From contig JANXOQ010000393.1 of assembly GCA_025357775.1 (NCBI GenBank), positions 1-11,419 on the forward strand: a DNA stretch of 11,419 bases. The letters run 5' to 3'. The stretch comes from Ferruginibacter sp. (lineage in GTDB: Bacteria; Bacteroidota; Bacteroidia; Chitinophagales; Chitinophagaceae). Numbering within the stretch: the first letter of the stretch is position 1; each line of letters begins with the position of its first letter. The translations under genes were made by a program, and so were the position numbers. The notes below the pieces were generated by a model, which worked only from the letters and a program-made list of their open reading frames with translations, was not told the origin of the DNA and did no database searches. Positions 1 through 10,471 of this stretch are shown in pieces.

Positions 1-473
1 GAGCGTTCTGCCATGTAGTAATCTTGGTAATCGTTCCATACCCATCCATTACCGTAAGCTTTGCTTGAAAAATTTTCGTCTCTTATATTTATTTGCTTTG
101 TGCTGGTTTTTAAAAAATCTACTACTGGTTGTTTTAAAAAATCTAGATGCAATAATGTAGGGTCGCCAGTGGGTGTTACAACTATATTATTTGGAAATTC
201 TGTATATCTTAATCCTACCAAACTATCGCCTAAATATTTCATAGCTGCATACATAGTAAACAATTTTACATTGCTGCTTGGTATAAAGTTTTTTTCTGCA
301 TTGTAATTGTACAAATATTTTTTTGTGGCAGGTTCGTATATGCTTATGCCTATATGCCCACTACGTAAGGCGGTATCGTTCAAAAAAACGTCAATTTGTT
401 TTTGAGTTATTTGCCCTATTGTTTTGCAAGAATAAATTATACTTGCAAAAAAGAAAATAAAAATGTATTTCAT
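1..473 (-). CDS. dacB: D-alanyl-D-alanine carboxypeptidase/endopeptidase, S13 family (PBP4-like), 5' part only
   Basis: The first 157 codons are present; the gene runs off the left edge, so the later SxN and KTG motifs are not visible. Family role: a periplasmic serine peptidase that trims or cleaves peptidoglycan peptide cross-links. Visible support: an N-terminal hydrophobic stretch (residues 3-15, rich in I and F) that fits a signal peptide, then the active-site SxxK tetrad Ser67-Asn-Val-Lys70 in the context PSSNVKLFT, as in PBP4 proteins. Further on, GDPTL and the segment YGNGWVWNDYQDYYMAE near residues 137-156 match the conserved S13 block around GWxWDDY. A Cys at residue 16 (IYSC) resembles a lipobox only weakly because Tyr is at -2. 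The ATG at 471-473 is chosen because it precedes the signal peptide directly. Repeat copy A lies immediately upstream and may supply its promoter. Confidence 0.85.
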   Translation of the reverse strand, partial: MKYIFIFFFASIIYSCKTIGQITQKQIDVFLNDTALRSGHIGISIYEPATKKYLYNYNAEKNFIPSSNVKLFTMYAAMKYLGDSLVGLRYTEFPNNIVVTPTGDPTLLHLDFLKQPVVDFLKTSTKQINIRDENFSSKAYGNGWVWNDYQDYYMAER

Positions 474-480
474 AAAAACT

Positions 481-504
481 TAATCTAGTGCATAATCTAA
501 TGCA
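481..504. repeat. 12-bp tandem duplication at the dacB-side end of repeat copy A
   Basis: Two adjacent 12-mers, TAATCTAGTGCA (481-492) and TAATCTAATGCA (493-504), differ at one base. Repeat copy B has only one such unit (from 10314), so the extra unit is specific to copy A and lies 7 bp before the dacB start codon. Confidence 0.7.
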
Positions 505-674
505 TAATGAAAGATGAGTAAAGATATAAAGATGAAATGTGCGACGCCAATGAAGATGCACATAGCTAAAACAGTTTGGACAACCTCGACACGAAGAGTC
601 GGGATTGACCAAAAAGAAAAACTACACCCTAGCCTTTACCATACAAAAAAGCAAAAAGGCTGCTAAAGGGTAAC
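493..674 (-). repeat. Dispersed intergenic repeat, copy A
   Basis: Positions 493-567 match 10314-10388 at 68 of 75 bases with no gaps. Past the core the copies diverge, but the order of parts is kept. First is a hairpin ATGTGC/GCACAT (537-563) inside the core. Then comes a second hairpin (arms 582-590 and 598-606, loop ACGAAGA). An A-rich stretch with CACCC follows, and last a CTTT...AAAG inverted pair ending in GTAAC. The strand is given as minus because both copies lie in front of a minus-strand gene in the same orientation. The element fills most of the 267-bp gap between the arginase-like gene and dacB. It holds no credible gene. I do not recognise a named family; a decayed small mobile element, a structured RNA or a promoter-carrying repeat all fit. 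Confidence 0.85.
519..550 (-). promoter_or_regulatory. Candidate promoter inside repeat copy A, reading toward dacB
   Basis: On the minus strand TTG (548-550) is followed after 21 bp by TATCTTTA (519-526), close to the Bacteroidota -33 TTG / -7 TAnnTTTG pattern with the last G replaced by A. The box ends 45 bp before the dacB ATG. Repeat copy B has the same pair at the same spacing. Confidence 0.35.
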
Positions 675-2020: not shown

Positions 2021-3121
2021 TTATAAAAGTTTATATAACTTTCCTGGCAATGATGCTATTACGCCTTGCATTTCCAACATTAATAAAGCGTTGGCAACTG
2101 CGCTGCTGCTCAAACCACTTTTAAAGTTTAATTCATCAATTTGTATACTTTCTTTTTCTTTCAAAATATCTGTAATTAATTTTTCATGAGGCGTAAGTTC
2201 TATAAACAATTCTCTTTGTTGTTTTATTTTTTTAGGAACATCTTTCCAATTCATAATATGTAATAAATCATCTGCGGAAGTAATAAGTAAGGCTTTATTG
2301 TTTTTGATTAGATGATTGCAGCCTTCGCTTCTACTATCTGTAACCCTACCTGGTATTGCAAATACATCTTTGTTATAATTATTGGCAAGCTCGGCAGTAA
2401 TTAATGAGCCGCCTTTTACACTGCTTTCTATTACAATTAATGCATCGCATATACCTGCTACAATTCTATTTCGTCGAGGAAAGTTTTGCCTATCAGGATT
2501 AGTACCACTCTTAAAATCTGTTAGCAGCCCACCTTGTGAAAGCATTTCTACTGCAAGCAATTTGTTTTGTGCAGGGTACACTTTATCTAACCCATGGGCC
2601 AATACTCCTACAGTTTTCAAATTATTTTTTAAAGATGCTTTGTGTGCTATAGTATCTATACCAAATGCAAGCCCACTCATTACTAATACGTTTTGTTCTG
2701 CTAAATCTTCCAACATTTTTTCACAGATATTTTTACCATAATCACTATTGCTTCTTGTACCTACTATAGATACTATTTTAGCTACATTTAAATCTGCATT
2801 GCCTTTGTAATAAAGCATTGTAGGGCTGTCGTAGCAGTTTAGCAATCGCTGTGGATAATTTTTTGCTGTAATAAAAAGTGGAGTTACTTTACTTTTTTCA
2901 ATAAACTTAATTTCGTCTTCACATATTTTAAAATCTGCAAAGTGTTTTATAGCATTTGCCGCAATAGTACCAATACCTTCAATATTTTCTAATTGGTTTA
3001 TTTTAGCTTTAAAAATTGTTTCAGCATTTTCAAAATGCTCAAGTAATGCTTTTGCACGCACATCGCCTATTTTAGGTATAAGGGTTAGTGCTATTTGGTA
3101 AAGTAAGTCGTTGCTTATCAT
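2021..3121 (-). CDS. dprA: DNA processing protein DprA
   Basis: 366 aa, the usual size. DprA binds incoming single-stranded DNA during natural transformation and loads RecA on it. Layout: an N-terminal helix-hairpin-helix/SAM-like region (about 1-65, with IPKIGD and IEGIG), then the Rossmann-like DprA core and a C-terminal winged helix (about 305-366, IQIDELNFKSGLSSSAV, ending GKLYKLL). Core motifs are intact: IVGTR (119-123, the GSR loop with Thr for Ser), SGLAFGID (149-156), FPRRNR (214-219), GGSLITAE (237-244) and IPGR (256-259). The ATG at 3119-3121 lies 21 nt after the stop of the PorE-like gene, so the two are probably co-transcribed. No other competence gene is in the window. Confidence 0.95.
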   Translation of the reverse strand: MISNDLLYQIALTLIPKIGDVRAKALLEHFENAETIFKAKINQLENIEGIGTIAANAIKHFADFKICEDEIKFIEKSKVTPLFITAKNYPQRLLNCYDSPTMLYYKGNADLNVAKIVSIVGTRSNSDYGKNICEKMLEDLAEQNVLVMSGLAFGIDTIAHKASLKNNLKTVGVLAHGLDKVYPAQNKLLAVEMLSQGGLLTDFKSGTNPDRQNFPRRNRIVAGICDALIVIESSVKGGSLITAELANNYNKDVFAIPGRVTDSRSEGCNHLIKNNKALLITSADDLLHIMNWKDVPKKIKQQRELFIELTPHEKLITDILKEKESIQIDELNFKSGLSSSAVANALLMLEMQGVIASLPGKLYKLL

Positions 3122-10280: not shown

Positions 10281-10313
10281 AAATTTGTCATTCATTTAAT
10301 TTTCAAAAATGCG

Positions 10314-10471
10314 TAATCTATTGCATAATAAAAGATGAATAAAGATATGCTGATGAAATGTGCGACGCCAATGGAGATGCACATAGCTGTGTTTTAGCTT
10401 GGATAATTCAAACACTTCGTGTTTGGATTTTCTAAAAAAATCACACCCCTACTTTTCCAAAGGAAAGTAAC
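10314..10471 (-). repeat. Dispersed intergenic repeat, copy B
   Basis: Same element as at 493-674, same orientation. The 75-bp core (10314-10388) is 91% identical to copy A. It has the ATGTGC/GCACAT hairpin (10358-10384), then a second hairpin with arms 10405-10415 and 10419-10429 around TTC, 11 pairs with one G:T. That hairpin shares position with copy A but has mostly different paired bases. The outer part is about 24 bp shorter than in copy A. It makes up half of the 306-bp gap between scpA and pirin; the rest of that gap holds the palindrome and the scpA terminators described separately. Confidence 0.85.
10340..10371 (-). promoter_or_regulatory. Candidate promoter inside repeat copy B, reading toward pirin
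   Basis: On the minus strand TTG (10369-10371), 21 bp, then TATCTTTA (10340-10347), identical in boxes and spacing to copy A. A transcript from here would have a leader of about 95 nt crossing the palindrome at 10261-10280 before the pirin ATG. Confidence 0.35.

What the first reader, a model, noticed from the sequence alone, without database searches (positions are those of the whole stretch)
493..674. Two-copy intergenic repeat with a 91% identical 75-bp core
Positions 493-567 and 10314-10388 agree at 68 of 75 bases with no gap, although they lie almost 10 kb apart in unrelated gaps. Both copies have the same orientation and sit directly upstream of a minus-strand gene (dacB, pirin) and downstream of another. 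The core has no plausible gene, yet is more conserved than AT-rich spacer should be. Two copies in 11 kb suggest many in the genome. I cannot name the family.
Basis: seen in the sequence. Interest (0 to 1): 0.7.

Follow-up and report, generated by a model that had tools for sequence, protein, structure and literature searches.

The report
Abundant alternating intergenic DNA repeat
A short stretch of DNA between genes belongs to a repeat family, for which I found no description, that one family of soil and water bacteria carries in a few to about two thousand copies per genome, with close neighbours pointing in opposite directions, which suggests that some unknown protein recognises it.

Summary
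In detail: 489-567 and 10310-10388 agree at 71 of 79 bases. They belong to a dispersed element of about 78 bp, not to a local duplication: 30 BLAST places at E<=1e-3 in this draft genome, 40 of 59 genomes of the genus by profile, 61 of 117 of the family. In three Chitinophagaceae genomes an exact 15-base core word occurs 1500-2004 times and its reversed control never; outside the family it is at chance level. I found no Rfam match, no covarying RNA structure and no kept reading frame. The 19-bp core is kept far better than its flanks. Copies sit between genes, rarely in divergent gaps, and neighbours alternate in orientation: same-direction pairs are 1 of 175 below 0.8 kb, 96 of 344 at 0.8-3 kb and 50 of 98 at 4.5-12 kb, whatever homology they share. 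Copy 2 has no counterpart found downstream of scpA in 29 congeners. Best reading: a new REP-like element whose core is a protein site used in inverted pairs. The protein is unknown.

The parts
489..567 (+). Copy 1 of the dispersed element (conserved part; the profile matches 497-573)
   Evidence: Direct repeat D1; profile R1 match 497-573, E 9e-18
531..549 (+). 19-bp core of copy 1, GATGAAATGTGCGACGCCA, with the odd palindrome GCGACGC
   Evidence: Read from the sequence; the 15-base word with one mismatch lies at 535-549
10310..10388 (+). Copy 2 of the dispersed element (conserved part; the profile matches 10318-10414)
   Evidence: Direct repeat D1; profile R1 match 10318-10414, E 2.6e-19
10352..10370 (+). 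19-bp core of copy 2, identical to that of copy 1
   Evidence: Read from the sequence; the 15-base word with one mismatch lies at 10356-10370

Best explanation
A new family of short (about 78 bp) non-autonomous dispersed DNA elements that behaves like REP elements and is, at the sensitivity used, confined to Chitinophagaceae. SHOWN: high copy number; intergenic placement with few copies in divergent gaps; a 19-bp core built round an odd palindrome (GYGACRC) that is kept while the flanks drift; a few discrete core dialects; alternation of orientation between neighbours up to about 3 kb, independent of gene direction and of shared homology; no counterpart of copy 2 found at the matching place in congeners. 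Few copies near promoters would then reflect selection.
For: Copy numbers 1500-2004 against 0 for the reversed word; family range; core versus flank (Limnovirga 292 exact cores, 36 with one and 11 with two mismatches, while the right 8-mer block is exact in 12.7% and the left in 11.4% of 324 exact-core copies); paired change of the two positions beside the palindrome centre, 565 C-G, 113 T-A, 3 other of 681; gap types (convergent 23 of 43, codirectional 51 of 183, divergent 9 of 40); alternation; copy 2 missing in congeners; no copy in a 44-kb island of Limnovirga. REP elements show the same gap preference and nearness to stop codons (PMC3733652, section read).
Against: No empty/filled site pair with clean ends or target duplication was found, so mobility is not shown; the missing-site test gives a 230-bp difference, larger than the element. 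At the copy-1 site other-dialect copies exist in three congeners, which speaks for old, kept positions there. Of 12 comparable gaps between Limnovirga and UBA4407, 5 have copies in both, 5 in neither and 2 in one, again more like retention than turnover, though small. In UBA4407 the core is less uniform (111 exact, 102 with one mismatch). No candidate protein was found; Y1 transposases are not flanked by copies as a rule.
Confidence: 0.5

Rival explanations
1. A boundary or cis-regulatory DNA element: each copy marks the end of a gene or transcription unit, insulating or regulating it through a bound protein, and is kept by selection at that place.
For: Right ends often lie 5-15 bp beyond a stop codon; copies facing the 5' and the 3' end of the same gene go together (odds ratios 3.1 and 3.4); the core is constrained; some positions are shared between genera and copies lie upstream of an apparent fusA in G000 and G002 (gene name recalled).
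Against: Segments enclosed by inward pairs are not more strand-homogeneous than others; copies occur in both orientations in codirectional gaps (18 plus, 28 minus, 5 double); copy number differs from 0 to about 2000 between relatives; neither window site has the own dialect in congeners.
Confidence: 0.2
2. A DNA uptake signal: the core is the word bound by a competence receptor, and copies accumulate by biased uptake and recombination, as DUS and USS do.
For: Copy numbers like those of DUS (thousands, PMC3630211, passages seen); dialects; balanced strands; inverted close pairs; no copy in a horizontally acquired-looking island; dprA is in the window but is common in bacteria (recalled).
Against: The unit is about 78 bp with a fixed architecture, not a 10-12-bp word; of 17 cores inside my ORF lie in ORFs below 130 aa and the other 5 within 95 bp of a called start, so genuine intragenic copies, common for DUS, were not seen; uptake was not tested.
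Confidence: 0.15
3. An ordinary REP family mobilised by a RAYT transposase.
For: REP-like abundance and placement; Y1_Tnp proteins occur in 14 of 15 genomes searched; CGTC, the tag of one REP class, lies in the reverse strand of the core and becomes TGTC in one dialect.
Against: No 20-40-bp palindrome: no consensus pairs, no compensating arms. Only 2 of 30 Y1 loci have copies on both sides and 11 of 30 any copy, in genomes where a copy every few kb is expected; in G130 (921 near-exact cores) neither locus has one. The strong hits read like subclass 1.2 (subclass motifs from passages), for which no REP is described there.
Confidence: 0.08
4. An inert old repeat whose close direct pairs were removed by ordinary recombination or slippage between the repeats.
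For: Same-direction pairs become as common as opposite ones with distance.
Against: The deficit is as strong for pairs sharing fewer than 12 identical bases (0 of 77 below 0.8 kb; 41 of 132 at 0.8-3 kb) as for pairs sharing 20 or more (0 of 24; 15 of 53). An inert repeat would not keep its core while its flanks drift.
Confidence: 0.05

Closest known systems
REP / BIME elements, in particular CGTC-tagged REPs (PMC3733652: abstract, passages and sections 6 and 15 read)
   Same: Dispersed in high copy, intergenic, between convergent and codirectional genes more than divergent ones, close to stop codons, close pairs inverted
   Different: About 78 bp instead of 20-40 bp; no stem-loop; no flanking transposase gene found; alternation of single copies reaches about 3 kb across genes
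DNA uptake sequences (DUS of Neisseriaceae, PMC3630211, passages read; USS of Pasteurellaceae, recalled)
   Same: Up to about 2000 exact short words per genome, lineage dialects, frequent inverted pairs
   Different: Embedded in a longer element with fixed blocks; genuine intragenic copies not seen; uptake untested
MITEs (recalled)
   Same: Short, non-coding, dispersed, with subfamilies; close inverted pairs could be read as long terminal repeats
   Different: Most gaps with copies hold a single one; spacer between inverted copies varies from tens to hundreds of bp; no terminal inverted repeats seen within one copy

Membership tests
REP (GTAG/CGTC) | 20-40-bp palindrome forming a stem-loop | tested here: not met
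   RNAalifold 0 pairs on 36 copies; arms pair no better than shuffled in 206 of 273 copies with a usable anchor; only an odd 7-11-bp palindrome in the core
REP (GTAG/CGTC) | High copy number in intergenic space, convergent and codirectional gaps preferred | tested here: met
REP (GTAG/CGTC) | RAYT gene flanked by the repeat (GTAG class) | tested here: not met
   2 of 30 Y1_Tnp loci have a copy on both sides within about 1.5 kb, 11 of 30 any copy; the genes read like subclass 1.2 (20 loci)
REP (GTAG/CGTC) | Terminal GTAG or CGTC tag | tested here: inconclusive
   CGTC/TGTC occurs in the reverse strand of the core, but not beside a stem
DNA uptake sequence (DUS/USS) | Hundreds to thousands of copies of one short word | tested here: met
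   1500-2004 exact 15-mers in three genomes, fewer in others
DNA uptake sequence (DUS/USS) | Copies also within genes | tested here: not met
   17 of 106 cores fall in my ORF calls; 12 in ORFs below 130 aa, 5 within 95 bp of a called start
DNA uptake sequence (DUS/USS) | Sequence-specific DNA uptake | not testable with these tools
   Needs a transformation assay
MITE | Terminal inverted repeats | tested here: inconclusive
   None seen within one copy in the alignments, but close copies form inverted pairs with variable spacers
MITE | Target-site duplication | not tested
   No pair of close relatives with a clean empty site was available
Structured RNA family | Covarying base pairs | tested here: not met
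   In one search the 25 strongest couplings of 227 family copies lie within five columns, while the smaller set of 54 has one distant one (-46/+28). In one search, 4 of 21 chimera tests have z below -2.5, with small effects and in different regions. The two palindrome positions do change together
Protein-coding repeat | A reading frame kept free of stops | tested here: not met
   In the best frame 81 of 281 copies have a stop within 43 nt; that frame has fewer stops than column shuffles (96 versus 128.9, sd 8.3) and another has more (284 versus 209.6)

The most novel reading that the evidence does not exclude
A family-wide system of paired, orientation-coded DNA sites: up to about 2000 copies of one protein-recognised core mark gene borders, and a dedicated protein reads them two at a time in opposite orientation (for recombination, uptake or insulation). 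I know of no described bacterial equivalent (recalled).
Probability: 0.35. Interest if true: 0.9.

Novelty: new variant of a known kind. Interest (0 to 1): 0.72.

Why it matters
Few bacterial repeats are recalled to reach two thousand near-identical cores, and six searches of the open paper library gave no description of this one in the listings seen. The alternation rule is a countable signature that copies act in pairs, so a partner protein can be sought by pull-down, and mobility, uptake and insulation can be told apart in a cultured species such as Limnovirga soli.

Tried and rejected
A variable hairpin between the core and GCCGGG looked convincing by eye but did not pair better than shuffled arms; chimeras of different copies fold about as well as real copies (4 of 21 tests with z below -2.5, namely Limnovirga 0..30 by 0.28 kcal/mol, family -40..0 by 0.19, family 30..75 by 0.2 and genus 30..75 by 0.9, the last two outside the element). 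A leader peptide was rejected by stop counts. RAYT mobilisation was tested and not supported. A mobile-cassette reading of inward-facing pairs was dropped because bracketed genes include proteins whose starts look like housekeeping genes (names recalled). An operon-bracket reading was dropped. A core-genome bias could not be decided: 11 of 166, 7 of 101 and 5 of 37 genes faced by 0, 1 and 2 copies have a homologue in the comparison sample. A first run of the shared-gap comparison on less sequence gave 7 cases, the larger one 12.

Limits: genes come from my own ORF caller, and elements there were found by patterns on the core, so decayed copies and other dialects are missed. Profile counts are capped at 65 and 32 scored candidates per genome. 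One search counted some Limnovirga and UBA4407 copies twice; one search recounts them without overlap before it stopped with an error at its fifth group. In one search the 'other assemblies' still held nine Limnovirga, UBA4407 or JANXWM loci; one search recounts without them.

Full report
OBSERVATION. The two stretches are real: 489-567 and 10310-10388 agree at 71 of 79 bases without a gap and are the longest direct repeat listed for the window. Rfam has no match at the gathering score and, at E<=5, two weak ones elsewhere in the window. The hairpins that follow the window copies are not shared by the other copies printed; they are probably terminators of neighbouring genes (inference).

DISTRIBUTION. 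In the own genome (2.99 Mb in 525 contigs) BLAST lists 40 places, 30 of them at E<=1e-3. Copy 1 as BLAST query matches 14 of 39 genomes: the own one and 13 of 23 congeners, none of 15 from other families. A sequence-only profile of 36 copies matches 51 places in G000 and 40 of 59 genomes of the genus, own included, and 61 of 117 genomes of the family in 55 of 100 genera; counts per genome are capped. The exact word AAGWGTGCGACGCMA occurs 2004 times in a MAG (G189), 1527 in Limnovirga soli (G190), 1500 in UBA4407 (G194) and 114, 68, 28, 16 and 2 times in five more; the reversed word 0 times in all eight; two further loci could not be searched. With one mismatch allowed seven more genomes have 19 (own), 58, 0, 66, 185, 270 and 921, reversed control 2 and 1 in the last-but-two and last, else 0. 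Over 395 genomes of the phylum it occurs in 8 of 14 of the own family and once each in 7 of 381 others; the reversed word occurs twice in all. G142 of the own family has the counts and listed places of Limnovirga soli, which places the window in Chitinophagaceae. Twenty stretches of IMG/VR also carry the longer word; whether these are phage or host was not followed up.

ANATOMY. Columns over 17 own, 37 genus, 227 family and 25 viral-contig copies, together with the printed copies, show a left block (GCTGAATA or GCTGCATA), a core GTACAAGWGTGCGACGCAA and a right block (GCT..AATAG ... GCCGGGCTCATAAAA), about 78 bp in all; blocks left and right share a word about 43 bp apart. In the own genome most cores read GATGAAATGTGCGACGCCA. 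In 400 kb of Limnovirga the core takes three sharp forms, 63 GAGTGCGACGCAA, 50 GTGTGCGACGCAA and 20 GTGAGTGACACAA, every other form found once, 11 in all. The two positions beside the palindrome centre change together: 565 C-G, 113 T-A and 3 other of 681 copies in one context. Much of this is subfamily structure, since the T-A form differs at further positions too; in a second context (GGATTG) there are mostly C-G copies, one T-A and one mixed C-A copy, a thin hint of an independent exchange. In 1.2 Mb of Limnovirga 292 cores of the main form are exact, 36 have one and 11 two mismatches; 3 to 5 mismatches rise again (61, 23, 60; control 0, 4, 22) because other forms fall there. Of 324 exact-core copies the right 8-mer is exact in 12.7% and the left in 11.4%. 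In UBA4407 the core is less uniform: 111, 102 and 30 with 0, 1 and 2 mismatches. So something keeps the core that the flanks escape.

NOT RNA, NOT CODING. RNAalifold finds no pair on 36 copies. Arms between core and GCCGGG pair no better than shuffled (206 of 273 copies had a usable anchor). The 25 strongest couplings of the family set lie within five columns; the smaller genus-plus-own set has one distant coupling. Chimeras fold about as well as real copies, with four small exceptions of 21 tests. In the best frame 81 of 281 copies carry a stop within 43 nt, although that frame has fewer stops than shuffled columns and another frame more.

PLACEMENT. In 400 kb of Limnovirga 106 cores were found; 23 of 43 convergent, 51 of 183 codirectional and 9 of 40 divergent gaps hold at least one. 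Seventeen fall inside ORF calls: 12 of these ORFs are below 130 aa and in the other 5 the core lies within 95 bp of the called start. Where the right-hand gene points its stop codon at the copy, the commonest distance from core end to stop is 35-50 bp, i.e. 5-15 bp beyond the element. A stretch of Limnovirga contig C1 from 59.2 to 103.4 kb has no copy; it holds a resolvase/recombinase protein and TraG/TrwB-like coupling proteins and ends at a Mg-chelatase-domain gene, so it looks like an acquired island (inference).

ALTERNATION. Consecutive copies point in opposite directions. Over 774 neighbour pairs, mostly from Limnovirga (1.2 Mb) and UBA4407 (0.69 Mb), same-direction pairs are 1 of 175 below 0.8 kb, 96 of 344 at 0.8-3 kb, 71 of 154 at 3-4.5 kb and 50 of 98 at 4.5-12 kb. 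Gaps with two copies read '-+' 117 times, '+-' 8 and '++' once, and one gap has three. Where consecutive gaps hold one copy each, 110 pairs are opposite and 28 the same, inward and outward alike (binomial P 1.1e-12). The rule holds in codirectional gene runs (27 opposite, 10 same; 13 and 2) and in other assemblies: same-direction 0 of 11, 1 of 5, 1 of 5 and 1 of 4 in JANXWM, and 0 of 8, 1 of 10, 6 of 18 and 6 of 13 in 89 further loci, for 0-0.8, 0.8-1.6, 1.6-3 and 3-9 kb. Homologous deletion does not explain it: below 0.8 kb no same-direction pair among 55 of identical class, 36 of sister class or 58 of different class; at 0.8-3 kb 33 of 109, 16 of 86 and 32 of 90. Operon borders do not explain it: enclosed segments are not more strand-homogeneous. 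Faced genes are longer (median 270, 494 and 631 aa for 0, 1 and 2 facing copies), in line with inward pairs being rare below about 0.8 kb (12 of about 150 pairs).

CHANGE OVER TIME. A core pattern finds no copy within 500 bp downstream of scpA in 29 congener loci, of which two hold less than 250 bp; 23 keep pirin in the same direction within 1 kb, and in the closest (84% pirin identity) the gap is 79 bp instead of 309. The same pattern finds none downstream of the arginase-family gene in 29 congener loci (some short), but reading the gaps shows other-dialect cores in three (L284, L291, L296) and perhaps a decayed one in L283. Between Limnovirga and UBA4407, 12 conserved gaps of 100 bp or more could be compared: copies in both 5, neither 5, one only 2; in two of the five the core form differs. 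So positions can be old, and the core form can be exchanged in place; the numbers are small.

MECHANISM. I commit to a REP-like dispersed element spread by a trans-acting DNA enzyme whose binding site is the core and which acts on two opposite copies at once (0.5). Shown: number, range, anatomy, placement, alternation, no counterpart of copy 2 found. Inferred: mobility, the enzyme, paired action. It is not filed as REP, MITE or DUS, because a defining feature failed or stayed open in each. A boundary element (0.2) and an uptake signal (0.15) stay open; results that favour them are given there.

LITERATURE. Six searches gave listings only; none of the listed titles describes this repeat, and in the search for the core letters only 20 of 96 papers were listed. 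Read: PMC3733652 abstract, passages and sections 6 and 15; PMC6006769, PMC3630211 and PMC7965970 passages only.

Noticed in passing
window 2021-3121 (-): A dprA gene (DNA_processg_A, DprA_WH), a natural-transformation gene, lies between the two copies; relevant only if the uptake reading is taken up.
   Followed up: no
G190 contig C1 59.2-103.4 kb (L251-L254): A 44-kb stretch of Limnovirga soli without any copy, with a resolvase/recombinase protein and conjugation coupling-protein homologues, ending at a Mg-chelatase (ComM-like) gene.
   Followed up: partly
L284, L291, L296 (gaps after the arginase-family gene): Another dialect of the core (GATGAACGGATTGCGACGCAA; GATTGTGACACAA in L296) at the place that corresponds to window copy 1.
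   Followed up: partly
L229-L248: Twenty stretches of IMG/VR viral contigs carry the longer core word, one UViG in several places; host contamination or true phage carriage was not decided.
   Followed up: no
G194 contig C91, L354 and L363: Two nearly identical Y1 transposase-like genes about 0.8 kb apart; strong hits in these genomes resemble the little-studied subclass 1.2 of PMC6006769.
   Followed up: no
G190 sample: Genes faced by copies on both sides are much longer (median 631 aa) than genes faced by none (270 aa).
   Followed up: partly
L014 and L039: Copies lie upstream of what looks like fusA in both G000 and G002 (protein starts; gene name recalled), a possible old shared position.
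   Followed up: no
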